Shown here piece after piece: positions 2,761-57,977 of a stretch of 64,000 nt of DNA. The stretch is taken from the NCBI GenBank assembly GCA_002245135.1, contig NGBS01001165.1, positions 186,001 to 250,000 on the forward strand, read 5' to 3'. The notes below the pieces were generated by a model that worked only from the letters and a program-made list of their open reading frames with translations, had not been told where the DNA came from and ran no database searches. The translations under genes were made by a program, and so were the position numbers. This DNA comes from Proteromonas lacertae. Taxonomy: Eukaryota > Sar > Bigyra > Opalinata > Proteromonadidae. Numbering within the stretch: the first letter of the stretch is position 1; every line of letters starts with the position of its first letter.

Positions 2761-5700
2761 TAATAAACTGTTTTCCTACCAAAATATTCTTCAATATTAT
2801 TTGGTATAATCTCCATAGTTGTTAATGAAAATAGTTTCTTAAAATCTGTCATTATACCAACTGCTAAAGGTATTTTTATTAAATTATTATCCAGTATCTC
2901 ATAATTACCAAGTGTGGATGAAAATGAATGGTTATAAACGGCTAAACGAAGAATATCACCTCCACATTTATCACCTGCTTCAATATGTAATTCTGAATAG
3001 CATTTTTCATACATTCTCATTATTACATCTACTAATAAATAAGCATGATAAGCTTTCTCATCTCCAGTTAAAATATTATTTGAAAATTGAGTAATTAATG
3101 CTGAAAATGGATTTGACATTATTTCACTCATGTAAATCAAACACAAATAACATTTGACTTAATTCTGCAGTATATGGTTGTATTTCATTATATGTTTGTC
3201 TGTAGAATATGATTCTTGAACTATCATGTTGACAACCAGCATCTTTATATGAAGATAAGATATATGGAATTGATTCACTTCTCATTGTATTAATAACTAT
3301 TAATAACATATAAAAGAGGTTAAAACATACTCATAAATCTTTCGCCTTTACTTGTCAAATCTCTTAATGTTGAAACTATAGTTGGTGTTATTTCATCATA
3401 ATATTTAAACACAAATCTCTTAATTATACTAATTCCATCTTTATTTAGTTTCTGAATCATATAATCTAAAAATGGTTCAGCATTGAAATGATGAATTAAA
3501 GATTCAAAATTACATATACAAAAAAAAAGATATAAATATTTATCGTCTTTCATTTCTAAAGTTACATAAATATTAAAACTGAACTTGTAAAACAAATACT
3601 TTGTAATCTGATACAAATGATCTTCATTATATGAAAAAGAAATAAAATTACTCTGAATTATTTTGTTTGAAGAAAAATCATCAATATGAATAAATAAAAC
3701 ATTTGTATCTGAATAGTCTTTAAAATTATACAAATCTCTTGTTGGACAGAACAATAAACATAACGAAACTCTATTCAAAGATCTAAGAAATTTCAATCCA
3801 TCATTAATCTCATTTCCATCTGTATAAGAATATACAATTGTTTTAAATGTAACATTGGATAAAATATCAGGTATAATATACTGATTCTTTGTTACAAATC
3901 TTCTCATAAATGCATGATATACTCCTGTATAATTGTTTTGAGAATCAATAAGTATTTTGTATATAATAAATATTGGTATTGTTGGAACTTCAATTCTATC
4001 TAATGGATTTGAAGGATTACTAAAATCACAAGTGATTATTGGATTATCATCATTATCAATTGTTGCAGAATCCATTAAAGTGTCTATCAAGTATTCTATT
4101 CTATTTTTATTATTAATAAACTTGCTAATTATTATAGGTCTTGTTACATGATGATCATATTCTAACATTACTGACGAATAAGGAGTTAATATCATTGTTT
4201 GAACTTCTTTTAATATTTCATCAGTCTCAAACACTGTTGCTTTTGTCACACAAGTTTTCCATAAGTTTATAGTAACATACGAATTATACATTACATCTGT
4301 TATATGTCTTTTTCCATAACAATTATTATACTCTGTTTGAAATTGTTTCAATTGTGTTAAAGAGTTATTCACAAATGAATATCTCTTTATTGTATCAAGA
4401 GAAGTTAGTTCTTCTACAAATACTGAAGTAAATATAGTATTATTTAATAGGTATCTATCTTTTTCTTCTACACTATATGGATATATATCAGTAATAACTT
4501 TAATATCACTTTCATTAACGAATTTACTAACCTTTTCTAAAACTGATTTTGGATTTGTTAAACATTGTCCCATCATCACAGCGACTGCAATATTTGCATT
4601 TGTATTATTACCAACTACTTTTAAAGCATTATCCAATGTGAAGTTATTATTTTTTATAGAGAAGAATATACAATTAAAATGTTCAACTATTCTTACTCTT
4701 TTCCCACAATAATCCTTATAACCATTATACGAAGCAAAATCATCAATATTAACATATAGCAACACAGAAGAAATTGAATTCAGTTGATAGAAGTTTTCAA
4801 TAACATCATATGTTTGGAGAGGATATGAACCAGTGTAAATAATATTTCTTTTACATTCATTCCCTTCATAATTTGGTAAATACCACATTAGTTTATTATA
4901 TTTTTCAAACAATGGATATATTGCTTTTCTTTCTATACTATTTATATACACAAAATAACCAATTACATTTTCATCTTTAAAATAGTCTTCAATTTCATCT
5001 ACTTCAATAAATATCGATTTGATAAAAAACCCAATCAATCCACCTTTATCATTTATTCTTTTCAATGCTAAAGTAATTCCTCTAAACACTTCTCTCTCTT
5101 TCTCACTAATATCAATAAATTCATCCTTGAAAACTATTGCTACAGTTTTAGTATCTTGAGTTCTTATCAAACCATTTCTATAATCAACATATATGTATTG
5201 CTTTGAATCATTTGTAAAGCCATAAGGATTAATAACTGTTGTATCAGGGTTTACTACCAACATTTCTTCCTCATTTGTCATATTAACAACAGACACTGGA
5301 TAAAGAAGATAATTTGTTGTTGAAATACTATAAGTAGTGTAAGATGTTTTGATGTTTACTTTATATAGTTCCTTCACTAACTTTGATTTACTATACTCAC
5401 TATTATCTGTTTTTAATGTTATATGATATGCCTGTAAAAACATATTCATCATAATAAACAACGAAAACTGTTTTCTCTGTAATATTCTTGATCCAAATAC
5501 ATCAACGTGTATCTTTTCATAATTATCATATTCCATAATATTAGATAAATCATATTCTTCTACATTCAATATTTCTTTAGTCAAAGATTTAACTCCATGA
5601 TTCTTTGCATAATAAAATACACTTGACTTCAATCTGTTTAGAATTACAGTAATTAAATAGATATTCTGTTTGTGTTATATCCAAATACGAATAATAATGA

Positions 5701-8700
5701 ATATTCTTTTCCTTAAACCCATTATTCTTATTACAATTAATTCTCAAATATTCATCCATCTCTTTTCCCATCAGAAAAACTGTAATAATTAATATTTCCT
5801 CAAACGAATCTAAATAATCAGATATTTCTTGAATAGACTTACTTCCATCATAATATACTTCTTCTTTATTAAGACAGTATGAACTAGTATACTCATAGAT
5901 TAACTTTGTAGTTAACCTTTGTGGATATAGTAAATAAACACATCTAGTATTAGATGGATAAGTTGATTTTATATAATTGAAAAAGGGACATAATAACTGT
6001 GTTACCAATCCACCAGAATAAAAGATTGACGTAGAATTTGTAGATGAAGGAGTAGTAATAAATGGGAAAATTAATAGTTTATCAGATTGTTCTATCACAT
6101 CTCTTACCATATTCAACTGGCCTAATGAATTACCACCAACTATTATTATTACTTCAGGATTATTCACTAGTTCCACAACCTTTTTTCTAAATGATTCATC
6201 ATCACTTTCTGAATCTAATACCATATAATCCAAACAAACTTTATCTAAATAATTATAGAATAAATAATATGTAAATAAATATACATGTCTTACAATAAAA
6301 ATCAATTGCAGATATAGCTATTAATATATGACTAATCTCTAAATTGGAATATTTTCCAGATACTGAACCAACTAATCCTATTTTCTTTCTACCACGACAT
6401 TTATAATAATTTCTAATATCTTCATATTCGTAACTGCAATGACATCCATTATGCTCTGGATATATCCACAACAATCTGAATGCTTTAATAGCTATATTAG
6501 AGACAGAATATAATTGCATCTCTCTATTGTATTTATCAATCCTTATTTCATTTACTACTGTTGACATTTGCCTTTCATCATTAAAATATGAATATGAATC
6601 AATCTCTATTTCATTTTCTTTCATATAATTAGATATAACTCCTAAATCAAACGATTTTACTGTATGAACTACTGTAAACCATCTATAATATGTTAAGTAT
6701 CCAGATAAAACAGATCCTTCAAGTGCGATATTATATGTCATCTTATAGTTCATTTCCTCATTAGAATCATATTCAGTTGGAACTTCAGTTGAGTATATAT
6801 ATTCAAATGGATTAAGAATCATTATAACTTAAATACTTATAAAATGGTACATATATTGGATAATTCACTCTATCTAATTCATTCAGTACTTCCAATAAAT
6901 CTATCTGGTATAAACAAAATGATGATTAAAGAATGATCACTAAAAGCTTTGATTCTTTCTAAGTAAAAATAATGATCATCTGTTGAATTATATTGTAATT
7001 CTAATAATGCAGCACCAACATAGTTATAATAATTTCTTATGTATATCATAAAATCTTCATATCTTTTATTGTATATAACAACAGCACTAAAGAAATCATT
7101 AAACATAAAATAGTTGAATGAAGCTTTAAAGTATTGATTCATTGATAATCCTGAATTAATTACATTTAAAGAACAAGTTCCTTCTATTGAATTAGCAGAC
7201 CAAATTAACAAATTATTATCTTCTGCATATGGTATAAATGTGTCTAAACAAACCTTTGAATTACATCCGAATATACCAACAATAGTATAATTCTGTAAAA
7301 GATTATTTAAATCTTTGTAACCTTTATCTTTATCATATTCCTTATTAAACACAATTTCATAATGTAAAATTTTCTTATTCAATACAGGAATTTCGCTTCT
7401 AAATTTGGATAATAATCCTATTGTAAATTCTTCATAATAAAACATATATTCATCTATTACAACAATTGCAATTTTGGTTTTTTCAAGTATCATTTCTTCA
7501 GCATACATACATCTTTGAAATGATGGTTCATACGAGGTTATACTATCAGGAAATATCATTTTTACTGATGAAATATATAATACATCATGATTATATATTT
7601 CTTTTAGATAATACTTCTTTGTAATCAAATGATTCTTTAGCATCATCATTTCACCAGTTGGTGTATCTATAAGCTTATCAAACGGAAATACACCATCTGG
7701 AATGAAATATTCAAACACAATATAAGCTAATGTCATTGACACTGATAGATGAGAGGAAGTTGTTATTCCTTTTATTCTATTATTCTTTCCATAACCTGGA
7801 ACAAAACCCATTTCATTTTTATTATATGGAGATGATCCTATGTAATAAATGTTGTGATGATAGTTTTCCTCAATTCTGTCAGAGGAATCATTATCAAGAT
7901 TGATAAGTATATATTTATTTAAAGCAGCAGGAGTTCCTGTAATTAACTGATATAATTTCTGTTTTATTGATGAAGAAAATGAAAAATATATTAATACACA
8001 TTTATCACTATTTTTACATTTTTCAGTGATATAACTAGATATAAAAATCCAACCACTTTTTGATTCAAATATATATACACTTCCTTTTATAAAGTATGTA
8101 TCGAAGTTTTTCTTTAATATATCAGCATATACATCATACAAATATATGCTTTTATCCATTAAAGCAATGGTCATTTCATATCTTCTGTAATATATGAAAT
8201 GATACAACAATGTCAGTTCTTGAATATAGACATTACCAATGAAATAGATGTTATTAAAACAATCAATTCCATGTGCATGAAAACTTGATAATAAAAATAC
8301 ATTAGTACCATCTAAGACAGATTGTATTGCTTTTAATCCACCAATTAATGGATGTCCACCTAATATAATCTCCACTTTTTCAGATAATAAGTATTCTATA
8401 TCTTTCTTTATCTCCTCAGCATCATTAGACAATCCTCTAACTATCAATCTATATTCTATAGATGCATTGTTTGTAGCTCTATATATTTCAAAAGTTTTAA
8501 AGATTATTGAAGGTGTGTCGAGGTAGTCTAAGAACAAATAGGGATTAATTATTCCAACTGAAACATATCTATCATATGTTGCATTAAAAACACATTCAGA
8601 ATACGTATATACAGTGTGAATATAAACAGTAGGAATTAGTATTATTGAGTATCTTTGAGGAAGTTGATTTCCTTCATATAAATGAGAATAGAAATAACTC

Positions 8701-11071
8701 AATTTACTGTGATGGTGATGATCAATACTGAATTCATTATTACTTACTGTTATATTCTTATTAACCATTTCATACTTATAATTATCAGAATAATCCATAT
8801 GACATTCAACTATTAGTCTTGATATTAAATATGAAAGATATGAAAAAGTTGAAAGAATATATTTTTTACCTTTAGAATCATTATTATTCTGACTATAACC
8901 TGATATTTGATTTATATATTTTACCAAATTCTCATTTCTATCATCTTTTACCAATGAAGTCATATAATCAAAATCACTCAACTCTTTTTCATTGAAATAC
9001 TTGGATAAATAATATAAGCTAGATAATGTGAAATACTGAAATGAATAAGGAAGCCTGCTGTTATAAACCATTATATTATCATAGATATATCTTGTAAACA
9101 AATATCTTTCTTTGTTTTGTATAGAAAAATCCACTATTGATCCACCATTCATCAAAGCATATCGTATATTATTAACAACTTTATAATAATCATCTGATGT
9201 AGAATTATCATATACTATTGAATATTTTATTGAATCTAATCCATATGTTGTAGTGTAACGATTAAAAGCGTTTAACAAATCTATTCCAATATCACTTAAA
9301 TCAAATATAAAATAAGATTCATCTAAATTATTAAAATGTTCTTGATAGGTTGATAATATATCTACGTAACTTGGTCCAATATAAAAAACAAGTGTATGAC
9401 AAACATCTATTTGGGTAAAGCCGATATTGAAGAAAGGAAGTGAATATGACTCTAACAATGGAACGATTTGATTTATCAACATACTATTCAGATTACCAAT
9501 TATTGCAATCATTGATTTATCATTCTTTATCCTTTCTTCAATTCCATTGTACAAATCTTCATCATTTTCTACATGAAGAGAGATAAATCTCTAAAATAAT
9601 ATAAAAAATATATATACATAATATGAATGATCTATTTTAATATTTATTTGATCAAGTGCTGCTAATATTCCTACCATTTCAGATCCATCTGAATCACTCA
9701 TCTCTGATTGAATAAATAGAATTGTAAAATATTTCCTTGATTCCATACACTGAGTATTTGAGAATGACAAATTACATAATTTCACTTCTGTTTGAGTGAA
9801 TGTAGGTAGAGATGTACCATTTAATGAATAGTTACCTTTGTATACCACAATTGTATTATTTCTATCAATATTTGTTCTATTCAATACTGAATATGTATCA
9901 ATATAATGATTTGAATTTAACACTAATCCAAATTCTTCCATTGAATCAATATCCACATGTTGAATTGATTCTAGCAATAAAAATAATGTTGTACTATTAA
10001 CATAATAACAATAACATATTATTATACATAATATAAGGACTGCCATCTTCAATAGGATAATCTATTCTCACTTTACTATCGGCTGAATAAATTGCATTGA
10101 CAAACATGTTTGAAAACTTACCTGATTTTTCTCCAACAATTATATCATTTTTGAAATGATGTAATTTCTTCAGTATTTGGTATTCATTTAAATACATATG
10201 GAACTTTGATATACTGTATAGACTTTCATCATTATATAATTCTTCTGTATCATGAATATTCAATATATTCACTATAAAGTCACACTTGTTCTTAATGCTA
10301 TTTCTTATAGTATCTTTATCTGATTCTTCCTTCTTAAAGTAATATATCTTTATCAGCGAATTAAGAAGTGGATTTGTTTGAAAAAAATTATATGTATATT
10401 CTGTTGAAACATCATTTTCTTTTCCTATTATACAAATATTCTTTGCTCCAATTGAAAATAAATAACTATTAACTCCAAATAGTATTTGGGATAATGTTCT
10501 TTCAAGTTGATAATATTTTCTATCACATATCATTCCAACTGATATTCCTACATTATAGAATGTGATATTTGTTGTTTTGATTATTTCAAACACATCGTTA
10601 AGAATATTATCATTGAATAATCATTAAGAAAACAAAAAATAAATACTTAAAAAAAAAACACAAAAAACAAAAAAAAAGATATGAAATACTTGCCATAATT
10701 CTAGCAATATTCTTCTTCTTTGAATCTTCAATAACATTTTTATAACAATTATAATCTTCTAAATCACATTCATAAAATATAAACTGGAAATCACTGATTA
10801 GTGTAGGGAAAAATGTGATATGAAGATAATTTGTTAGATATTGATAGAAGGATTCGAATTCTTTTATTCTTTCTTCTACAACAAATGCGATTCTTTGCAT
10901 ATAAATGTCATTATCTAAGTAATAACAATTATTAAAATATATATTTTATACATTCTTCATTAATTGCAGTACATGTCAAAACATGACCATCACCAATTGT
11001 CACTCTATCATCAGAAGAATAAATTGGTATTAAAGATCTTTCAACCATCTCAGAATTGATAATCTATTCCC

Positions 11072-26742: not shown

Positions 26743-29063
26743 TTACTTTCTTTTCTTATCATGATCTCTACCATGTCTATTACTAGTTGAACTACGTCTA
26801 GAATCTCTCGAATGACTATGACGACTTCTTTCCTTAGATCTATTTCTAGAATGAGATCTATGTCTCTTTTCTGACTTTCCATCATCTCTATGTTTACTAC
26901 GACTTCTCTCTTTTCTTCTTTTGGGCGATTTACTAGCAGATCTTGACACACTTCTCTTTCTTTTACTTTTAGCAATAATAGCTGATTGTGGAATAATTAC
27001 ATTCTCTAGTCTTTGTAGTTTTTCACCTTTCTTTACTAAATTATTCATATATATAGATCTAGCTTCTTCACAAACACCTATACAATATACCAATATATAA
27101 TGTAAAATATCAATAGTTGGTGCTCGAATAAGTAACTTTGTTTTCCAGCCATATTCTTTCAATGATATTTTTGAATTGAATGAATTAAATTGATGATTCA
27201 AATCTTTAAGCTTCCTTTTAATATTATCTTCTTGATCATCAATACTAGGATCTATACCAAATTGAATATATTGCTCGAAATGATCATCTTTTTCTACTGG
27301 TTGTAAATAAGCTGGCTATATATAAATACAAATTAATATATAAATACATAATCTGATATTTTATTATTATTCACAAATGCAGATAAAGTCAATAATTGCT
27401 TCACTTCAGGTATACTTAATTTCCTAGCGATTAAAGCGTTGTATAATATTGGAATAACTTCTTCTTTCTTCATATGTACAGCCATTGCTTTATTACAATA
27501 CAATTGGCCAACTCTGATTTGTATTGGATATGGTGACTCTTTAGTATTTCTATTAATAAAACAATCTATTCAAATAAATAAATCAATAATACATGGTTCA
27601 ACATTTCTAATTGGATATGTCAAAGCTTCATAAGCTCCATAAACAATATGATCCGTTGAATCATATAAGAATATGATCGTACCAGGAGTTATAAATTCAA
27701 TATTACTCGCATATCTTTCACTTACACCAAATATTTGTTTTTCTAAACATTCATAAATTGTCTGTTTTGTTACTACAAACATATATCCTTCTCGATCAAT
27801 CAAAGGAATATTACTAATTGGAGTGTATTCAATATCATTTGAAGTTTCAACTCTTCCATCAAAACTCCAACCACCTTCTGGTTCATCTGATATATTTAAC
27901 TATTTAAATTATTCATTATATATATATATATATATACACTATCATGTCGATATAATATCTCCATTAATCCCATTGCAGGAGTATATGATATTTCTTCCAT
28001 ATCATCTTTCTTTATTAGTAGTTTAAAATAATCACCAATATAATTGCATATTTCAAATTGAACATATGTATATCTAATCCATTCAACTTTAAATTCAAAA
28101 ACATCTCCTTCAACTAATTCAGGACAAGATTTCAAAGTACAAACACCAAAATATGAATTGGTAAACATTATACTACAAAAGAAATATATATTTTTATTAT
28201 CTTTATAATTATTTATAATATTTAAAATATTTCCATTTACATTTGGAACTCGCCATATATTATCTCTTATTGATAATATAAAGTTGTTTTTATTATATGA
28301 TTTCATCATGTAAAATCTAGTTGTATCTGGATGAGTGACGGGTAAACCGAGTAAATCTAAGGTTCTTCTATCTGGTAAGGTTGGGATTAACGGTTGTAAA
28401 TTGGAATCTAGCAATTGTGAATCATCTAGTTGATTGTTAGGGTTATTTCGTTCAGGTATGATTAATTCACTTTCACCATGGGCATATATACATTTGTCAC
28501 CATATATACATACGCCATGGAGAAGAAAATTGTTGCACAGTGATGTTTTATACTTATCACTTCTTGTAGGCTATTCTTATATACATAAAAATAAAAATAA
28601 ATACAACTGCAGGTTTTGCTGTAGATTGCTGTTGTTGTTGTTGAGATTTGTCAAGAGTTGGTTTTACTTTCTTTAATACTTCTTCTATTGGTGGCAACTG
28701 ATCTTTAGTTTTTTTGACATGAACTCTTAAACAGTTTGGACCAAATGGACAAAATCCTTGATTATATAAAATACATTCAGCTTTACTACCATGACTGAAT
28801 GGACAATCTGGGTTAACACAAAATACACCATTTGGACAATCTGGTACTCTTTCATGAACATATTTGTGTAAATACTCGCATTCTTCACCTTTTTGACATA
28901 AGCCTCTTAGCCAATGATGACACACCTCCAAACCAGCTCTATTATCATATTTTAGATGAAGTCTAATAGCTTCCTTTACTCTTTCAGGTCCTTCCAGATG
29001 CGAAATACCCTCCACTTGCTTCATATTATCTTCAAAGTCGAATTTAATACAATCTAAACTCAT
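26743..29063 (-). CDS. CPSF30-like CCCH zinc finger protein fused to YTH, DCD and SR-rich domains
   Basis: Five exons (introns 28571-28607, 27900-27937, 27566-27592, 27316-27374) give 719 residues in one frame. MSLDCIKFDFED starts it, like CPSF30. CCCH fingers are at about 48-66 (CHHWLRGLCQKGEECEYLH), 76-91, 97-115 and 164-182. A YTH domain spans about 236-362 (RFYMMKS, IWRVP, FKVEWI). A DCD-like domain spans about 400-525 (TIYECLEKQIFGV; PGTIIFLYD; NVEP then YPIQIRV). A basic Arg/Ser tail ends the protein. CPSF30 is an RNA-binding subunit of the polyadenylation factor, and YTH domains read m6A. CPSF30-YTH fusions are known in plants and apicomplexans; the added DCD and RS tail are not known to me. 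Expected role: m6A-linked poly(A) site choice in the nucleus. Confidence 0.85.
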
Positions 29064-29136: not shown

Positions 29137-29721
29137 ATGCCACAGAATCCAACGAAGTATATTATAATCATTAACGTTTAATACTATATATAATATAATT
29201 TATTTTTATCTAAATATAGAATAATCACTCAATTGATTGGTGCTCAAGTAAATATAACAACACTTGATGGAAATACAATTAATGGAGAAGTGTGGTGTGT
29301 TCATCAACCAACCGAAACAATACTAATAAGACATCAATCTACAGATCACACTAATAAAGCTGAATGTTATTTGGTGAAATACAGTTTTATTAAAACAATG
29401 GAAAAATTAACTGAAGGAACAGGAATAAAGAAAAATACACTACCTAGATTAAATTATGATAATATTATGAAACGAGAGAATAATGCTATAGCTTTAAGAA
29501 AAATGACAATTTATCTTCAGCAGAACAATATAGATATGAGAGCATTGCAAATCCTACAAAGTTTGTGTGTAGGATTGAAATGTAACTTTATTGATGGATC
29601 TATAAATGTTTGCAATGAGATATTTATAGATTCTCCATATACGGCTGATAAAATAAGAGGAAATTTAGATAAATATTCTCATATAAAGACAATAGTAGAA
29701 AATGTATGGTCAAATCAGTAA
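29137..29721 (+). CDS. LSM12: LSm12-like protein (LSm fold plus anticodon-binding-like domain)
   Basis: A seven-codon first exon (MPQNPTK), a 63-nt intron at 29157-29219, and a long second exon give 173 residues, close to the roughly 195 of animal LSM12. The N-terminal half (IGAQVNITTLDGNTINGEV) is an LSm-type beta barrel. The C-terminal half (ENNAIALRKMT...DSPYTADKIRG...HIKTIVENVW) matches the LSm12 AD domain, which follows the barrel in this family. Animal LSM12 binds ataxin-2-type partners in RNA metabolism. Divergent from the CPSF30-YTH gene. Confidence 0.85.
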
Positions 29722-29931: not shown

Positions 29932-32636
29932 TTAAAATGTAAATGATTTAAGTACAAAGTCTCCTTTAAGATCAAAACATACTCTATATATATTCTTTTC
30001 AAATTCACAATTATAGTAATATATGTTAACACTACCAGTCTGTTTTTTACCATTTACTAAATATTCCTTTTCGTTATTCTCTTTTTTTATTACTTTTATT
30101 TCTTCTATTCCTTTAAAATGTGCTGCAAAAATTGAATCATTTGATTGATGTAGAATAGTGCTTCCTTTAGATGAAACAAAAATATAATGAAAATCTGGCC
30201 AGCCAAATAAAATGTTCAAATGTATCATACATTCTTTTACTATATCATCACATTCACTTGAATGTGATTCATTATTAACTATGTGAATAAAACAATTATT
30301 CAACATATATATCATTTCTCTGTTCTTACCACTAGCAAAATGAAGTAAATATATTCCTTCATTGTTTTCAGTCATATTATTCTTTTTAGTGGAATATATA
30401 TCTTCATCGAATAATTTCTTAAATTCTTCAAATCTATTTTGTTCTATTTCTTTTAATATAATACCACTGTAGCTTTGTAATTTATCACCATTATATAAAA
30501 TATTGTACCATACTAATTCTCCAAATAATAATTCAAACAATTGAAGATTGTTTCCTTTTCATAAATGTCTTTATATATTTGTTGAATTGCTTCTATATCA
30601 TCTTTTCCAGCTTTATGTTTCACACAATCATAAATAAAATCAAATATATCATCAGAAATAAATTCCATCTCATATTCATTTATTCTATCAAAATATTTCT
30701 GCTTATTCTCTTCATCTTTATATGGAATTGAATATTTCACTATATAATGACATAATGTACTATCAAATGTATTTATTAATTTTGATATTCTATCATTTTC
30801 AGTTTTATTTGGATATAAATAGGTCATTAGAAATTCCATATAACCAAGATTACCAACTATTCTCTTTATACCATTGGTATATAATTCTTTCCAGTAATCT
30901 TTACCATAACATTCTTTATATATTGATACATAATAAATATGTCTTGGAACATTTCCATATCTACTATTAAACCCCTTTGCTGTATTTATTAAATCAGGAT
31001 GTAAACAGTTGTCTTCCCATTCTTCAATTTCATTTTTACTAAATACATCCATATAATAGAAGATTTTCACACAGTTTTCATTAAAAAATGCTTCATAGTT
31101 TTTGTAATCTGGCGATGCAATATATAATATTATATGAGATTCTGCCATATTTTTATCAACGTTATATGAATCAGATATTGATATATCATATTTCTTTCCT
31201 CCCTTACCTTCAACCACTTTCGAACCAGCTAAATGATATGCATTATAGCAGGGATATTCAGTTTTACTTTTAAATATATTTGTTCTGATTGGATCATCAA
31301 TACTAACTCCTAATTCAATTATTTTCATCAATAAGAATATAATGAAGGATGTTTTACCACATCCTGGATTTCCTCTTAATAAAAAACTGATCAAATTATT
31401 CACTCCAAATTCGTCTTTCTTTCTTTGTAATGCTGTTTGTAGTTTATGTATGTTATAATTCAATCCTTTTTCTACATTGCCTATTATTCTATTTAATTTC
31501 ATTCCATTATGTTTATTTAATTCATCGATTATTTTGTTGCTAACCTCTTTAATATGTCCTAATTCTTCATTGGTAGGTGATTTATGTTCCATAATATACT
31601 TTTTTAATGAATCTTTTTGATCTCTTAATTTAACTAATAGAATATATTTCTTCAATTCATTCCATATTTCTCTATAAACAGTTCTGATATATACTTTTTG
31701 TATAGGATACTGAAATATATTACAATCAATTTTTATAGTTTTATCATCAAAATAGTATGGACTTACATCTCCAAAAACTTTACACAGAGCATTACTAGCT
31801 ATAATAATATTACAATATAAACATATATATATGTATATACTTGTACGGCTTTTACAATATTCTGGTAAATCATTCAAAATTAATTGTAATGTCTTGAATC
31901 CTTTTTTATACTCATATTTATATTTATCTAGTTCCTTATTATCGATTTGTTTTTCAATTAATTCTTTAATTTGCTTTACTTCATTATTTTTCATATCTAG
32001 TGTTACTATTTTATCAATTCGTTCATACTCCTTCTTAATTATTTCTTTTATTGTTAGCACATCTTTATCATTAACATCATTTTCTATTATATCAACGACA
32101 TTTGGATCATCGATTATTTTGTCAAATATTTCATAATTATATATTATATCATCATTCTTATTATCATTTGATTGAAATAGCATAATCGAATCTTCTGAAT
32201 AATAACAATGCAATAAACTTTGAATCCCTTCAGATGTTAAATAATTATGCAAATTGCCTCTATTGATAGGATAATTAAAATATCTAAGTCTTTTAGATTT
32301 AATTGATATTATATTCTCTCTTGGATCATCTATTTTGCTTTTCTTTTCAGTTGGTTTTTCATTTTTATCAGGCTGTGCAGATGATGCTTTTCTTTTAGAT
32401 CTTACAGGCTGACTTGATTTGCTTATTGATACAAGAGGTTTATCCCAACAATAATAATGTTCAATCTCTTCTTTCATTTTTATACTTAATTTTTCTCCAT
32501 AATGGCCAAATTCTGTTTCACCAATTTCATAAGACAGCTCAACATCTTCTTGATCATATAATATAAAAACTATGTTAAATATTGGGTTACATTTGTTTAA
32601 TTCATTAATTATATCATTTTTATTTATATCTTTCAT
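29932..32636 (-). CDS. P-loop NTPase of the Crinkler/RHS effector-like class
   Basis: Begins MKDINKNDIINELN at 32636; a 42-nt intron lies at 31799-31840. A bipartite basic stretch (RSKRKASSAQPDKNEKPTEK) suggests nuclear targeting. Residues 415-425 or so hold Walker A (GNPGCGKTSF). After it come HIILYIASPDYKN and a C-terminal ATPase part (SKNEIEEWED...GFNSRYGNVPRHIYYVS). The Gly-x-Val-Pro-Arg step is typical of the NTPase domain shared by Crinklers and trypanosome RHS proteins. Near 30513-30540 the frame changes: either a 26-nt intron (GTTTGA...TTAG) or a frame break, in which case FELLFGELVWYNIL follows. The last 200 residues show no clear nuclease motif. Family call is from motif pattern. 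Cellular role unknown; relatives act as effectors or in genome conflict. Confidence 0.6.
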
Positions 32637-32677
32637 ATTTAATTCTTTAGATATTTCCTATAATTAATATTGATATA

Positions 32678-34416
32678 TTAATATACACTAATAATTTCAT
32701 TTTTTATTTTTTCTCTTTCTCTTTTTCTTTCTTTTTCTTTATCTTTATCTTTATTCAAGCCGTTGTATTTTACATCGATCAAATAGTCTTCTAGATCATG
32801 CAATACATCATTATTTAAGTTTTCTTTTACTGTTTCATTTGCTTGTTTAATATTATATAAACTCACTATTTGTAGTTGGTATTGAAGTAATACTAATTGG
32901 TAATTCAATAAATGCAATTCTGATTCTGATTTTGTAGTTTCTAAGTCGGATGAGAAGCCTTCATAATAAGAATTCAAATCACTTTTTTTATCATCAGTTA
33001 ATAATGGTGTGTGTATCAGATTTTCTAATGCTATTAACCTACATGGTTGGTTATGTAATGTTTCTACTAAGTTTACTAATAATTGTAACGGTTGTCTTTG
33101 TAATTCTATTAATGACTCTTGTAAAAATTGTAGTTCGTTAGGTTTATTTTTAAATTCCTGAAACATATTCACTAATGATGTTAATTGTGAAGGTTGGATT
33201 TGCAATATCTCCATTAAATTTAATATATTATCAAACTGTGATGATGATTCTTGAAATGCTGCTATTAAGCTCTGTAAATAATGTAGTGGTGCTTGGTTTT
33301 GTAATGCTTCTATTAAATCATTTAATTCACTTAGTTGTTTCTGGTTTTGTGATGCATTTAATAGCCTACAAAAAGCTGTTAATTGATGTGGTTCATTATG
33401 AAATTTTTCTACAAAATTATGAAATGTTGTCAAAAGATTTGGTTGATTTTGAAATGCTTGAATTAATTCTTCTAATGATTTCAAATCTAGATTCTTTTGT
33501 AATGTTTCTATTAATTTCTGATTTGATAATGATTCTTTCTGAGCTTTTAATTTATTTATTAAATCTTGTGTTTCATTAAGATATTGTTCTGCTTCAAATA
33601 TATTTAACTCTTTTTCTGAACCTGGTGGTAGTTTCAATAGTAATTCTTTCTCACTTTCTAATTTATTTACTAACTCCTGTAAGTTATCTATTAATTCCTG
33701 CAATTCATTTACAAATGATTGGTTTCTGCAATTTTTCTATTAAGTATTGTAATTGATTTAGATCTTCACGATTTTCAAATATTTTCATTGAATTTTGTAA
33801 TAATTGCAGTTGTGATTGATTCTGTAATGTTTGAATTAAATTTTGCAATTCAATTACATATGATTGATTATATAATTTTCCTATTAACTCCTGTAATGCT
33901 TTTAATTGCGATTGTGATTCTTTCTGATCTTGTAATTTTTGTAATACATTCAATAATCTTATCAATTGCGGTTGGTTTTGTAAAAATTGTGATAGGTCCA
34001 ATATTTCTACTTGTGTTTCCTTTAATTCAACTTCTTGTTGGGGCTTTAATGAATTCATAAATATTTCTAATTCCGTTGATAGTTCTTCAGGTAGAGTAAA
34101 CTTTGATGCTATTACTATACTCTTTAACATTTCTAAGTGTGATTTTGGCTATACTTTGTAAATTTTGTATTGATTGATGAAATAGTTTTAATTCTTTATG
34201 TGGTTGTTTTTCTAATAATTTCATAAATTTTAGTAATTCAATAAATACTGGTTGATGTATATGATTTTGCATCGTTTGTATATCTATTAAAAATGATTCA
34301 AACTGTGATGATGTTAAACTATGTAGTAATTGTAATATTTGTAATTGATTATTTGATTGTTTCATTTGCTCCAATAATTCTACTTGTAATTTCTTTATAC
34401 TCTCTACGATTGTCAT
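32678..34416 (-). CDS. protein of tandem ~17-residue Leu/Gln-rich helical repeats
   Basis: Three exons joined through introns of only 22 nt (34133-34154) and 25 nt (33688-33712) give 563 residues. Most of the protein is a degenerate repeat of about 17 residues whose core reads LQNQPxxLxxLxxLIEx, for example FQNQPNLLTTFHNFVEK, FHNEPHQLTAFCRLLNA and LQIQPSQLTSLVNMFQE. I count at least 16 units. Each would form about one amphipathic helical hairpin turn, so an alpha-solenoid or long coiled coil is likely. The C-terminus is Lys/Arg/Glu-rich (KDKDKEKERKREREK). No signal peptide or membrane helix. It sits between two P-loop NTPase genes on the same strand. I know no named family with this repeat. 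Confidence 0.7.
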
Positions 34417-34485
34417 TATTCTAGTGATTATTATATTTACTAAACTTTTTGATGCCTTTGATAGACTATGATATATTATTAGTAA

Positions 34486-36429
34486 TCATGGTAACTCTTC
34501 TACAATAATTTTATCTACTATATTTTCTAATGTAAGTAATTCTACTATTATTCTATAATCTTCACACTTTATCTTGGGATTTTCTGCAATTATTGATTCT
34601 AATCTGTTTTCTATATCATTCAATTGTCTATCTAATACGTTAAACATTTCATCATCTTTTTTATTATTACCTGCTATACAATTCAATTGTGTTTTCAATT
34701 TATTATATTCAATCATATCCCTATCTAGCTTATGAAATTGTATCATTCTCTTTTCACCATATAAATTAATCAAATCATCTTTAATAGAAATATCGACATC
34801 TCTTCTATACTTAACCACATTAATTAAAAACTATAAAAAGAATAAATAATACAAATATATACATATGTCTCACATAATGTTCTTATTCTTCCATCCATCT
34901 GTAATATGTAGTTTCTTTTTAATTTATTTGGTATATAACCATTTTGGTAAAGTGATGAGATTAATATCTTTTTATCTTCTTCTTCATTATCAATAGTAAG
35001 ACTTTTTAAATAGTCCAATTATAGCTGTTTTATGATAGTTATAAAGCATCTATATAATAATAAAATAAATATTTATACCTCTAACAAAGCTATTACATTA
35101 TGCTTAACAGAGTGTGTTTTATCTTTTGTCATTTGAACAGCAGTTATGTTGAATTTGTTAATAATACATCCATCAATACAGGGGAAATTAGATCTTTCAC
35201 TAAAATCTAAATATAATCCATCTACTTCTTCAGTAATTAATGTAAGATCTTCTCTTTTCTTTCTTATATACCTTTCATTTGAATCTAAATATTTTAATAT
35301 ATTATCCATTTTCTCTAAATAGCACTTATTTGTTGGAAGATATAGAAAATCATAACTATTGAAGTTCAAATCTTTATAATTACAACTACTATTTGACAAT
35401 ATTATATGAATCAACCTCTCAAATATCTTTCCATCATTATCTTTCATAAACATATCATGTAATTCTTTATAATTCTCTTGAGTTATGAAGTAATTACCTA
35501 TTATGCAATTCTTTATTTCATCAGATTTAAATACTAATCGATCTGGTATATCATTTATTCTTTTTGCATCATAAATATAACAATTTTCATTATATTCTGG
35601 TGGTATGTATGACGGCAATCTACCTTTCTTTAGCATCAAACTTTAAATATTTATCTAATTCCTCTATATCACCTGCATGTTGTAAATTATATCCATAATT
35701 GACACACTTTGTTAGTAATTTTTTAAATTCTTCTTTTGTTCTATGAACTAAATTTTCTTTATCCACATTATAAACAATCTTTACTAACTCAGCATAACTA
35801 AAAAGAGGTATGTAAAACTGAATTGGAGCTCTTTTGTTACTCATTACTTTGTATTTATCTGCTTTGGGAGAACTTATCATAATTACTACATTATCATCAC
35901 TATAATCATCTTCTTTAATCTCACAATTATCACTTATAATAATACTTTTTCCTTTTGTCTCTGGTAATTTTTCAGAAGCGTAATATTCTTTACCATTACC
36001 TTCTCGAAAATAATACTTTACTTCATTATATACTTCACCAACAATGATTACATTGTAGTCTTTAAAATCTTTATCTTTATTAAAGCAATAGGCTAAAACC
36101 ATGCATAAACTTGTTTTACCTGTGCCTTCATTTCCATAAATTAAAAAACACTTCTGAGGTTGAAATTTAATAGTTGCAGAGGTTGTACTACCACTTTTGA
36201 CAGAGGATTTGTTTTTAAGTGAATGACATATTTGCGATAGCGGGGAAGATAATGTATGTATCGGTAATACAGGAACTGCAATGATTCTTTTAATCTCACT
36301 ATAAATACCAACATAACAATCTCTCACAAGAATGTAAGGGTTCTTTATATAATATTTATTCCGTTTTTCTTTTATCATCTGCATCTCATTTATATCATCA
36401 TAATCGACATATCTATGATAAAGACTCAT
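34486..36429 (-). CDS. Crinkler/RHS-type P-loop NTPase with restriction-endonuclease-like domain
   Basis: Starts MSLYHRYVDYDDINEM at 36429. Walker A is GNEGTGKTSLCM (about 36110-36150), followed by NVVIMISSPKADKY and a helical C-terminal ATPase part. A 22-nt intron (35620-35641, GTTTGA...GTAG) or a frame change leads into a second domain. This holds DGKIFERLIHIIL, EEVDGLYLDF, FPCIDGCII and AVQMTKDKTHSVK, the pattern of the PD-(D/E)xK-like nuclease found at the C-terminus of Crinkler and RHS proteins (Gly-x-x-Phe-Glu helix, acidic strand, Gln-x-Thr). A 29-nt intron (35050-35078) follows. The short exon after it has one unresolved frame change before LKSLTIDNEEED, and the last exon is coiled-coil-like. 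Start uncertain: another ATG is upstream at 36501. Confidence 0.6.
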
Positions 36430-36545
36430 TATTAAAAACAAAAATGATTCTTTGATAATCAAACAATGAAGATGTTCAGTAATCAGAATCAATAAACACA
36501 AACTATATCAAGCTAATCAAAGAGTATTTTTTTCTTTTATATAAT

Positions 36546-53765: not shown

Positions 53766-56700
53766 TTAATCCTCATCTGATACTTCAACATCATCATTAA
53801 TTACTTTTCCATTCAAATCCTTATTTTTCAAATTTCCAACCCAGAATACATCAGGACAATCATTTTCTTGTGTAATTGCTTTGATTTTATAGATAAATAA
53901 TTCCAAATTCTTCTTTATCTTAGGAGCTATTGAAATCATTGAAGTATTTCTTGTAGATTTACCGTGACTGCATAATGCCTGAATTTGTCTAGTTCCTTTC
54001 TGAAAAGTCTTTAATATATCAGTAATCTCATTAATATAACTCTTAAAAATCTTTGAAATAAATGAAATAATCTTTGATAAGAAAATATCTATAAATTTCG
54101 ATCCATACTTCAATGCTGAAGTTAATATTGGTCTAGTCTGTACATAAGAAGTAAAATGAATCAAAGTAGTAAATGTAACAACATGTTGACCTATAACCCT
54201 TAAGGTATTTATCACATCTTCAGTATCCAATTCAACCAATGAAAATGATTGTTGAGTAACTTCAATTAAAGTAGAATAATACAACGGTAATGTTGTTTTA
54301 TTGAGTGTGGGAAAATTTTCGGAGAAATTAATAGCTTTATTTTCTTCATCCATCAATTCTCGAAATGTTGTTCCAACGAAATGCATTGTTAAATCAAATT
54401 GAATTGGAGTTTGTAGAAAATAGTACTTCAATAACATTCCTATATTTTTAGCTTTATAATTTGCTATATTCCAGTTTTTTTGTAAGAATGAAGAGAGTAG
54501 CAAATTGTATGATTTTCTTTTCAATTTGTAAAGTTCATCATCTGTTGATTCTATTATTTCAACTATCTTCTTTAATAAATCAATATATGTATTGATTATA
54601 TTGAAATTAGTTATATGTTCTAAGATTGATTGTATATATTCAAATGCCAATTTCAATATTTCTGTTTTAGTTTTTTTATTATTCTCGTCATTTTCTACTT
54701 CACATTTTGCTAATATTCTCAATACTACTTTATAATAATCGTTATAACTCTCAACGAATTCAGAATGTAATAAAACTATAAATATCTTTCCAATATAATC
54801 GATGATTTCATCATCATAATCACTATTATCATCTTCACTTAAACTTGGAGTAACATTTTTATCAATAATTCTCAAACTAATTTGATTTCTTAACGATCTT
54901 AATACTTCCTTTTGTAGATAACTGAACATTTCTTGAGGTGTATAGTTATTGTTGTTATTTGTTGATACTTCATGCATTTGTCTCATCTTTGTAAAGAATC
55001 CTCTTGGTGGATCTAAAACTGCTTTTATAGTTGGATAATTCTCAGATAATAGTAATAATATTGATTGTGAGTTTAATTGGTATAATTGAATGGTATTATT
55101 TTCTAGTGATTGTGATTTGATTGTTTTACATTTTAATAATATCAATGAATGAGGATGAAATGTTACTACTTCTGTTTCATATAAAGATGATAATGTATTG
55201 GATGATGATAATGATGATGATATATTGATGGATTTTGATTTATTTTGGCTTTTTCCTTTGCCTTTCTCTCCACTTTCTATTCAATAATATAATAATTATA
55301 TACTTTCTATTGTTTTGAATTTCTTTCTAATTGTTTCTTCTACTTCACTGATATTCTCACATCTTAAATAACACATTCTTATTATCTCATTTCCATCAAT
55401 ATTACTAAATATCGATATTAATAATCTTAACCATTGTAAACTATACAAATAACACAACTTTAATATATCAACAGTTTCAGATTTATAGATTGTAATGTCA
55501 TTCAATGTGTCAACTGACACTAGTAACAAAGGATAACTTAAATAAGGAATTAAATTGATTATATTGTTATGTATAATTTCATTACATAAAACCAGTAATT
55601 TAAACTCTGGTATAAATAGATTGATGATATATTTATTTTGGTTTAATAGTAATAATAACACATTTATAACTTTATTATTGTTGTTATTTGCTAGGTTATA
55701 AATAGGTTTTGGTATAATATTATCATAGTCTTTTAATTCTTCATATACACCTCCTTCAGGTATATCACTCACAAACAAGTTATCAAATTCTTGAGATACT
55801 AAATTGTAGATTATTTCAATGAATTTAATATCATATTTTCCATTTTCAATATAACTACTCAGTTCATTATAAAAGAAAGACTTCAATTTCGTATCTCTTT
55901 TACAAATAGAATAACATAAGTTGAATATTTCATTACAATTATCAAATGAAGATTTTCCATTATAAGTTGGTATTTCTGATAATATGTCAATAACTGACAG
56001 TGAAAAAATCACTCCAATTTGTTGATATTGTTCCGACGTGTTTGATAAATGTTTTTGAATATAAATTAACAATTCATCGAATGAAAATCCAGGATTATCG
56101 TTTGATAAACAACATAACTTTGTCAATATTTTTGATATAATTTTATGATCTTCTTTATTCAATGTATAGATTATATCTAATAATGAACGAATATATAATC
56201 CATAATACTGAAAATTATTAATCAACTCAGGTTCTGTATATTTATATAATAACAATAAACATTTGTTTGTCGTATTTGGAGTAAAACCATTAACATGAGA
56301 AATGATAGTCAAAATTACTTTCTGTTTATCACTTGGATTATCAAAATATTTAAATAATATATAATACAATGTAATACCTCTATCAATGAATATTGGTTCA
56401 TTTTTATTCACTAAATGAGATGCTAATTGTAAAAGTACTGTAAAATATGGTTGAAATAATAATTGATAATTATTCAAAGAATCTTCTATTAATTGTGATG
56501 ATATTATTTCATTTTCACATAATTTTCTGAATATTGATTCAGCTTTGGATGATATTGAAGTGATTGATAAACATATATAAATCAACCATATATCAAATAT
56601 ACTTATACTATCAACTGTTACTTTTTTGATTATTTTAAATATCTTAGTTGTAATATCAATTTTACATTTTAATAAACTTGAAATGGTATTAAAGAATATA

Positions 56701-57602
56701 TGAAAACTATCGAAATCCTGTTGTATAATATCAGCAGTGATATAATTCCTATATTTATTAAATATACCATTCAATTGTTCTATATCTAAATATTGTAATG
56801 AAAACTTCAATATAATAGCATTTTGTGTTATTTTCACTTTATCTATTAATTGTAATAGTGTAGATCGAATAATTACTATTTGATCAGCGGTTAAATCTAA
56901 ATCACTAAGTAAATCTATCACATACACTGTCAAATTCGGTTCACCCGTTATTAAATCCATCAATGATTGGATAGATTGTGACATTGTTTCTTCATTAATG
57001 AATTCACTTAAAATTGATAATAATTGTCTTTGTATTATTAATGGTAATATCCCCAAATATTGGAATATTAAATTTATTATATTGGAGATGTTGTTGTGAA
57101 AATCTGTCCATCTTAACTGGGAAATTATTAGATTAACTGTGCAATTATCAGGAAAATTGTCATTATCATTCTCATCACTGTATACTGGTATTTGCTCAAA
57201 TAAATACTCCACTAATTTCATCTGTAATAGTTCCACATCGAGTGAAACTTTGCATATAGAATCACCAAAATGTCCATTCTCTTGATCAGATGGCTTGTCT
57301 GAAATCCAAATTGGTGATAAAAACGTTCTAAAATTTTCTCTATCCTCAGACAGTAATTTTACACAATTTAAATAAGATGAGCATTTTTCTGGAGTACTTA
57401 AACTCTCTTTTATTTTACTTTGAAATATGGATAGATCTTTGGTTTGAACTTTCGATAGTTTAGATGCTTCCCACTCATAATTTATCTCACAATCGTTTAA
57501 TAAAGGAAAAAAGAAACCATCCAATTCACTTGATTGGTCTTCTACCTCTGGACGTTTTGCTGGAGGTACTTCTGTTGGATTTGACTTTCTTTTTAATCTC
57601 AT
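53766..57602 (-). CDS. FANCD2: FANCD2 (Fanconi anaemia group D2) homologue
   Basis: Two exons around a 27-nt intron (55277-55303) give 1,269 residues (human 1,451). I start at MRLKRKSNPTEV; an in-frame ATG 54 bases upstream also exists. Strong family segments: VEYLFEQIPVYSDEN...LIISQLRW, YYILFKYF, FYNELSSYIENGKYDIKF, SDIPEGGVYEELKDYD, and at the C-terminus RQIQALCSHGKST and DVFWVGNLKNKDLNGK. FANCD2 clamps DNA with FANCI in interstrand crosslink repair once monoubiquitinated. The acceptor-lysine context (human Tyr-Lys-Leu-Ile-Gly) here reads YQQIGVIF, with Gln at the lysine site and also before the Tyr. The acidic C-terminal tail (DDVEVSDED) is short. Very firm identification. Confidence 0.95.
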
Positions 57603-57977
57603 ATTCAAAAAACGCGATTTCGCGCCAATTCGATTTATTCTTAAATAGAAAAACATTTGGTATTAATTTTCTTTTTATTATGTTGATGGTTATAAATTAC
57701 ATATATTCTGAAAACTTCTTACAAATTGTAATATTGATGTGTGATTCAGTTATTTAGCTTGCAAGTTGGTATGATTTCTTGTGTTATATATTATTTAAAT
57801 AAATTATAGTATATATTTAATGAGTAACTAAAGAAAAGAGTTTTTCTGTATTTGTTGAATTACAGTGAGTATATTGATCGAGATGTATTTAGTATTATAA
57901 ATACCATTAAAATAATATAAAGAAAATCAAAATACTTTTAAAAAAAGTTAAATCACAATTTATAATGTTTAATTTAA
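57603..57977. other. intergenic, upstream of FANCD2
   Basis: About 375 bases between the FANCD2 start and the 3' end of MEMO1. No exon or repeat supported; contains the FANCD2 promoter. Confidence 0.5.

What the first reader, a model, noticed from the sequence alone, without database searches (positions are those of the whole stretch)
26743..29063. CPSF30-YTH fusion extended by a DCD domain and an RS-rich tail
One 719-residue frame joins four CCCH fingers, a YTH fold, a DCD-like domain and an SR tail. CPSF30-YTH alone is known from plants and apicomplexans. DCD (development and cell death) domains were described as plant-type stress modules, and I know of no fusion to the polyadenylation machinery. 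This would physically link poly(A)-site choice, m6A reading and a stress-type domain.
Basis: partly seen in the sequence, partly recalled or inferred. Interest (0 to 1): 0.82.

Follow-up and report, generated by a model that had tools for sequence, protein, structure and literature searches.

The report
Poly(A)-factor CPSF30 fused to YTH-DCD
This is a protist's RNA 3'-end-processing protein joined to two RNA-modification-reader-type domains, a combination already reported in water moulds and related algae; what is new here is that the part that should grip methylated RNA looks broken.

Summary
A five-exon gene on the minus strand (29063-26743) encodes about 728 residues: CCCH fingers (four by pattern), a YTH domain (Pfam 45.7 bits), a DCD domain (62.1 bits) and an RS-rich tail.

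Two things stand out. First, the YTH domain keeps the first cage tryptophan (W258), but the loop that carries a Trp in YTHDC2 is seven residues shorter and has none; the only other YTH protein found in the genome also lacks Trp in that loop. Second, the MT-A70-type genes found are AMT1-, MTA9/AMT7- and METTL4-like; METTL3 was not found, nor METTL14 as far as the family profile reaches. The proposed link of m6A reading to poly(A)-site choice is therefore doubtful. Best reading: the CPSF30 of a heterokont-type protist, with YTH kept but probably not a canonical m6A reader. No expression or binding data exist.

The parts
26743..29063 (-). whole coding region of the CPSF30-YTH-DCD-RS gene (5 exons, 728 or 729 aa)
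28719..28922 (-). three CPSF30-type CCCH fingers (residues 48-66, 76-91, 97-115)
   Evidence: phmmer to PDB Yth1 and CPSF4; zf-CCCH; finger limits by pattern, coordinates
28571..28607 (-). intron 1, 37 nt (or 28571-28604, 34 nt)
28478..28537 (-). fourth CCCH finger, C-x8-C-x5-C-x3-H, tristetraprolin-like (residues 164-183)
   Evidence: PF00642 best stretch 159-185; tristetraprolin 1m9o; coordinates
27956..28321 (-). YTH domain (residues 236-357)
   Evidence: PF04146 45.7 bits; weak PDB matches to YTH chains, best E 0.0048
28097..28138 (-). shortened, Trp-free loop (residues 297-310) where YTHDC2 carries a Trp
   Evidence: pairwise alignments; MAFFT
27900..27937 (-). intron 2, 38 nt
27384..27788 (-). 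DCD domain (residues 401-526), interrupted by intron 3
   Evidence: PF10539 62.1 bits; genome search; coordinates
27566..27592 (-). intron 3, 27 nt, inside the DCD domain
   Evidence: one search reports one TGA inside the DCD match
26971..27383 (-). unassigned segment after DCD (residues 527-653, spanning intron 4), where heterokont orthologs are reported to carry KH
   Evidence: residues 539-637 and 548-628: 0 Pfam families at E up to 10; whole protein: only a sub-cut-off MutS_I match at 617-667, E 0.15; single-sequence model pLDDT 53
26746..26970 (-). RS-rich basic tail (residues 654-728)

Best explanation
This is the organism's CPSF30 (CPSF4) of the heterokont type, CCCH fingers-YTH-DCD, with an RS-rich tail. 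Inferred mechanism: the N-terminal fingers hold the protein in the CPSF complex, touch the poly(A) signal and bind Fip1; YTH and DCD, both of the PUA/EVE-like superfamily, add RNA contacts that bias cleavage-site choice; the RS tail keeps it nuclear and near splicing factors. The YTH domain has probably lost canonical m6A capture and persists as a structural, unmodified-RNA or protein-binding part, leaving DCD as the likelier modification-sensing domain. Shown by computation: domain content, a single CPSF30-like locus found, no Trp in the cage loop of both YTH proteins found, no METTL3 found. Inferred: every binding and functional step.
For: Finger matches to Yth1 and CPSF4; one CPSF30-like locus in the genome, the query's own (1 of 1 candidates); a Fip1 match (66.9 bits); DCD and YTH over cut-off; fingers-YTH-DCD in the same order published for heterokonts (PMC7641849); TPI-GAPDH fusion (marker value recalled). 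Against m6A reading: loop seven residues shorter than in YTHDC2, whose Trp falls in a gap of the query; the second YTH protein, on C58, matches YTHDF1 on both sides of the loop but has a low-complexity insert without Trp; PF05063 finds only C1172 and C31 even at E 10. C1172 is closest to the MT-a70 chains 8xyl/7f4l (250 bits; Tetrahymena MTA1 from memory) against 98 for METTL3; C31 to 7cv6 (71 bits; Arabidopsis METTL4 from memory) against 34 for the next; a third, C160, to MTA9/AMT7 chains. The METTL3 catalytic domain as query finds only C1172. METTL3 and METTL14 homologs were also not found in oomycetes (PMC11449341, passages).
Against: W258 is kept and YTH is over cut-off, so ligand binding may remain. 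m6A could be written by other enzymes: P. sojae METTL4 and METTL16 orthologs are implicated in RNA m6A (PMC11449341), and some depositors of the chain closest to C1172 call it 'mRNA m(6)A methyltransferase'. Absence searches are six-frame, exon by exon, on an assembly of unmeasured completeness; PF05063 missed C160, and METTL14 was sought only through PF05063. L009 shows a frame break without an intron, so the assembly holds indels or decayed copies. No structure model was usable (mean pLDDT 53 and 32). The YTH loop could not be compared in other heterokonts, and the C58 exons were joined by eye.
Confidence: 0.68

Rival explanations
1. It is a working m6A-reading CPSF30 as in Arabidopsis and Toxoplasma: YTH binds m6A with a rearranged pocket and steers poly(A)-site choice, and DCD adds a second modification.
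For: YTH over cut-off with the first Trp kept; the Toxoplasma and Arabidopsis CPSF30 YTH domains bind m6A RNA and hardly unmodified RNA (PMC8313237, passages); a CPSF30 YTH chain (5zuu) is the best PDB hit, though weak (E 0.0048).
Against: The loop in the cage region (residues 428-439 of YTHDC1 per PMC8313237 section 10) is shortened and Trp-free here, the other YTH protein lacks Trp there too, and METTL3 was not found.
Confidence: 0.2
2. Two separate genes or transcripts (finger-YTH and DCD-RS) lie head to tail and the fusion is a gene-model artefact.
For: The joins rest on splice-site sequence alone; no RNA data are held. Plants make a short CPSF30S without YTH as well as the long form (PMC8313237 section 6). 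The assembly holds at least one frame break without an intron elsewhere (L009).
Against: Exon spacing is 27-38 nt, a usual intron length here, reading frames join without stops, and the same order of fingers, YTH and DCD is published for heterokont CPSF30.
Confidence: 0.05
3. YTH and DCD are both drifting remnants with no RNA role, and the fingers alone do the work.
For: Trp-free YTH loop; DCD reads NVEPYCF where the genome's other DCD protein reads AIDNSAW (by eye).
Against: DCD scores well over cut-off along profile positions 2-125 of 126, and YTH along 1-133 of 135.
Confidence: 0.1

Closest known systems
[quoted passage not shown] 2020, PMC7641849; example the oomycete S. diclina)
   Same: CPSF30 fingers, then YTH, then DCD, in one protein, same order.
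   Different: No KH detected after DCD here; a fourth finger and an RS tail here; the YTH loop is Trp-free. Whether S. diclina shares the last two features was not tested.
Plant CPSF30L and apicomplexan CPSF4-YTH (PMC8313237, PMC6117058)
   Same: CPSF30 fingers joined to YTH.
   Different: Those have three fingers and, in Toxoplasma, a strongly conserved m6A cage (PMC8313237 sections 6 and 10); 'DCD' does not occur in PMC6117058. Here four fingers by pattern, DCD, RS tail and a Trp-free loop.
CPSF4 of animals / Yth1 of yeast
   Same: Finger core: residues 46-118 here align to 66-145 of the CPSF4 chain.
   Different: Metazoan and fungal proteins have five fingers and no YTH (PMC8313237 section 6); the second finger here is shorter than its counterpart in the alignment.
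Plant DCD proteins
   Same: DCD profile PF10539.
   Different: Here DCD sits on the polyadenylation factor, not in the plant development and stress proteins described first (PMC7641849).

Membership tests
CPSF30 / CPSF4 | array of CPSF30-type CCCH fingers | tested here: met
   E 2.5e-18 to Yth1, E 2.9e-15 to CPSF4
CPSF30 / CPSF4 | only or best CPSF30 candidate of the genome | tested here: met
   one locus, the query's own
CPSF30 / CPSF4 | physical membership of the CPSF complex | not testable with these tools
   needs purification; Fip1 match present
YTH m6A readers | YTH fold by profile | tested here: met
   45.7 bits, cut-off 22.1
YTH m6A readers | aromatic cage: first Trp | tested here: met
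   W258 aligned with the YTHDC2 Trp in GIW; its role in the cage is recalled
YTH m6A readers | aromatic cage: second Trp in the loop | tested here: not met
   no Trp between W258 and W316; the YTHDC2 loop Trp falls in a gap of the query
YTH m6A readers | m6A-dependent RNA binding | not testable with these tools
   needs a binding assay
DCD (PF10539) | profile match over curated cut-off | tested here: met
   62.1 bits versus 27.8, positions 2-125 of 126
Heterokont YTH-DCD-KH CPSF30 | fingers, YTH and DCD in this order | tested here: met
   one search compared with PMC7641849 section 13
Heterokont YTH-DCD-KH CPSF30 | KH domain after DCD | tested here: inconclusive
   residues 539-637 and 548-628 match 0 Pfam families at E up to 10, but HMMER filters drop most weak matches and the model of this stretch was poor; a divergent KH is not excluded
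Heterokont YTH-DCD-KH CPSF30 | host is a heterokont | tested here: inconclusive
   TPI-GAPDH fusion fits; the rRNA search did not complete

The most novel reading that the evidence does not exclude
In this lineage the YTH domain of CPSF30 has outlived m6A: the METTL3/METTL14 writer and the Trp-bearing cage loop of both YTH proteins are gone, and modification-sensitive poly(A)-site choice, if any, has passed to the neighbouring DCD domain (for instance m5C, the ligand Bell et al. suggest for heterokont DCD). It would be a natural experiment showing what a YTH domain does without m6A.
Probability: 0.25. Interest if true: 0.7.

Novelty: new variant of a known kind. Interest (0 to 1): 0.4.

Why it matters
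CPSF30-YTH is a clear case of a polyadenylation factor that reads an RNA mark. A protist that keeps the fusion, with DCD, while lacking the Trp-bearing cage loop and apparently METTL3 lets one ask directly whether YTH and DCD on CPSF30 serve m6A, another mark, or none. As a domain architecture alone it is ordinary for heterokonts.

Tried and rejected
Novelty of the DCD fusion: rejected after PMC7641849 came up (read). One search found 0 papers holding both 'CPSF30-YTH' and 'DCD domain'.

Homologs: the full-length protein search gave one weak hit among 4054 candidates, P0001 (E 1.3e-4, 26% identity over 19% of the query; CCCH fingers and PF04564, a U-box from memory); region 375-650 gave none of 771 at E 0.01. 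No plant or oomycete CPSF30 appeared, so these searches say little about rarity. The third protein search was not used.

Structure: single-sequence models of exon 2 and of 139 residues of exon 5 were poor, so no fold search was run.

KH: the stretch after DCD looks strand-strand-helix-like by eye, but no profile matched.

m6A writers: the WTAP profile gave one match under cut-off (27.6 of 35 bits, E 7.1e-5) in a 2355-residue open frame; a prokaryote control rang too, so I took it as chance. VIR_N gave none of 7 candidates, and the tool marks that result as uninformative. METTL16 profile PF05971 gave none. No METTL14-specific query was run.

Poly(A) signal: of 245 long ORFs kept in 264 kb, 53 passed my end-of-gene filter, 52 after removing exact duplicates (at least one near-duplicate pair remains). 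Within 60 nt after the stop AATAAA occurs in 4 of 52 (shuffled mean 5.9); TGTTTGTT with at most one mismatch in 20 of 52 (shuffled mean 11.6; 1 of 300 shuffles reached it; 2 of 52 at 140-200 nt). The motif was picked after I saw the hexamers and recalled Blastocystis, and the region is T-rich. Exact TGTTTGTT occurs 35 times, once per 7.5 kb, against 20.4 expected from base composition, and other T/G words are as common or commoner; in Blastocystis it is once per 2.8-3.1 kb (PMC5608401, passages). Too weak to tie to CPSF30.

Full report
Observation. The gene is real at the stated place. On the minus strand an ATG at 29063 opens a frame that runs, through four introns of 37, 38, 27 and 32 nt, to a TAA ending at 26743. 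The product is 728 aa, or 729 if intron 1 begins three bases later. Short introns are common in this genome: 49 of 125 candidate joins in 264 kb had exactly one GTA[TA]...TAG solution, median 34 nt, 43 of 49 between 27 and 41 nt (the filter itself asked for these ends, and two of the printed ones belong to this gene). Residue numbers below are for the 728-aa model.

Domains. Pfam gives CCCH fingers (54.9 bits, three stretches passing on their own), YTH at 236-357 (45.7 bits, cut-off 22.1) and DCD at 401-526 (62.1 bits, cut-off 27.8). Three fingers by pattern (48-66, 76-91, 97-115) lie in the stretch that matches Yth1 and CPSF4; a fourth, tristetraprolin-like finger sits at 164-183. Residues 654-728 form an RS-rich tail with 20 R and 19 S in 75. 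Between DCD and the tail no Pfam family matched residues 539-637 at E up to 10; the whole-protein scan shows only a sub-cut-off MutS_I match at 617-667 (E 0.15).

Is it CPSF30? The finger array says so, and a genome search with it returned only this locus. A Fip1 match lies elsewhere. In plants, chromerids and apicomplexans the first finger is conserved with metazoan finger 2, linked to A1 and A2 of AAUAAA, and the third with finger 5, involved in Fip1 recruitment (PMC8313237 section 6). In the alignment the second finger here is shorter than in CPSF4.

Known or not. Bell et al. 2020 (PMC7641849; passages, section 13) searched available genomes for DCD. [quoted passage not shown] the oomycete S. 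diclina is the drawn example. They place DCD in the PUA-like superfamily with EVE and suggest m5C in mRNA as its target. The host fits: a TPI-GAPDH fusion is present (L010, 567-residue open frame), which from memory is a stramenopile and cercozoan trait.

The YTH pocket. PDB matches of the YTH stretch alone are weak: a CPSF30 chain (5zuu, E 0.0048; Arabidopsis from memory), YTHDC2 (E 0.0067) and 7ng2 (E 0.012; Toxoplasma CPSF4 from memory). W258 aligns with the first cage Trp. After GVCTL the protein has KSCPELVEGDVFEFK before VEW, where YTHDC2 has SSEIGREKSQDWGSAGLGGVFK; the YTHDC2 loop Trp falls in a gap of the query. PMC8313237 section 10 gives residues 428-439 of YTHDC1 as part of the cage region; that W428 is a cage residue is recalled. 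The 5zuu alignment stops before this loop and resumes after it. The only other YTH gene found (C58; 38.4 bits six-frame, 51.2 with two exons joined by me) resembles YTHDF1 on both sides but carries a Ser/Thr-rich insert without Trp in the loop.

The writers. PF05063 finds two MT-A70 genes even at E 10. C1172 is far closer to chains deposited as 'MT-a70 family protein' (Tetrahymena MTA1 from memory; some depositors also write 'mRNA m(6)A methyltransferase') than to METTL3: 250 versus 98 bits. C31 is closest to 7cv6 (Arabidopsis METTL4 from memory): 71 bits, next 34. A search with the C1172 protein found C160 (E 0.002), closest to 8xyl_B and to chains named MTA9 and AMT7. The METTL3 catalytic domain as query found only C1172. 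So the genome seems to hold an AMT1-AMT6/7-type pair, which PMC12695648 (passages) calls DNA-associated, and a METTL4, but not METTL3; METTL14 was sought only through PF05063. METTL3 and METTL14 homologs were also not found in oomycetes, although P. sojae shows RNA m6A linked to METTL4 and METTL16 orthologs (PMC11449341, abstract and passages). METTL16 was not found here. Absence is weaker evidence than presence: completeness is unmeasured, PF05063 missed C160, and L009 shows a frame break without an intron.

Reading. The safest account is a heterokont-type CPSF30 whose fingers do the conserved work. Its YTH domain probably no longer captures m6A in the usual way. DCD and the RS tail may add RNA or protein contacts. 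A link from poly(A)-site choice to m6A looks unlikely here, and one to stress is untested.

Side observation on 3' ends. In 52 unique gene ends AATAAA is not enriched after stop codons, while T-rich sequence and TGTTTGTT-like words are moderately enriched (motif chosen afterwards). Blastocystis uses a TGTTTGTT element and no conserved upstream motif (PMC4159000, passages), but there the exact motif is more than twice as dense. This is a lead only.

Verdict. Observation confirmed; architecture already known in heterokonts; the variant features are the Trp-free YTH cage loop together with no METTL3 found, the fourth finger, the RS tail, and no detectable KH. Interest is moderate.

Noticed in passing
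29194-29718 +: LSM12-like frame (Pfam AD 31.3 bits over cut-off, LSM12_LSM 25.2 bits below it), divergent from the CPSF30 gene with a short gap.
   Followed up: no
53769-57662 -: FANCD2-like gene in two frames (FancD2 127.5 and 163.6 bits).
   Followed up: no
3323-9590 -: Two long frames with periplasmic-binding-protein-like matches (Peripla_BP_5: 78.8 bits over cut-off, and 24.1 bits below it), perhaps receptor ectodomains.
   Followed up: no
30516-36507 -: Large frames: two (30516-32657, 32681-33736) without a Pfam match at E 0.001, one (35623-36507) with AAA_23 over cut-off and nSTAND3 below it.
   Followed up: no
L036, genome place C160:158723-158953: Divergent MT-A70-like protein closest to MTA9/AMT7 chains that PF05063 misses; with C1172 it suggests an AMT1-type DNA 6mA pair.
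   Followed up: partly
L009, L010, L012: TPI-GAPDH fusion genes. L012 is nearly identical to L010 but frame-broken, and L009 has a frame break without an intron: alleles, decayed copies or assembly errors.
   Followed up: partly
L001, genome place C248:63727-64128: Second DCD protein (76.4 bits six-frame; 87.2 bits with two pieces joined), no other Pfam domain in the pieces read.
   Followed up: partly
window and C573:1-200000: No AATAAA enrichment after stop codons; moderate TGTTTGTT-like enrichment within 60 nt (20 of 52 against 11.6 in shuffles), recalling the Blastocystis signal but weaker.
   Followed up: partly
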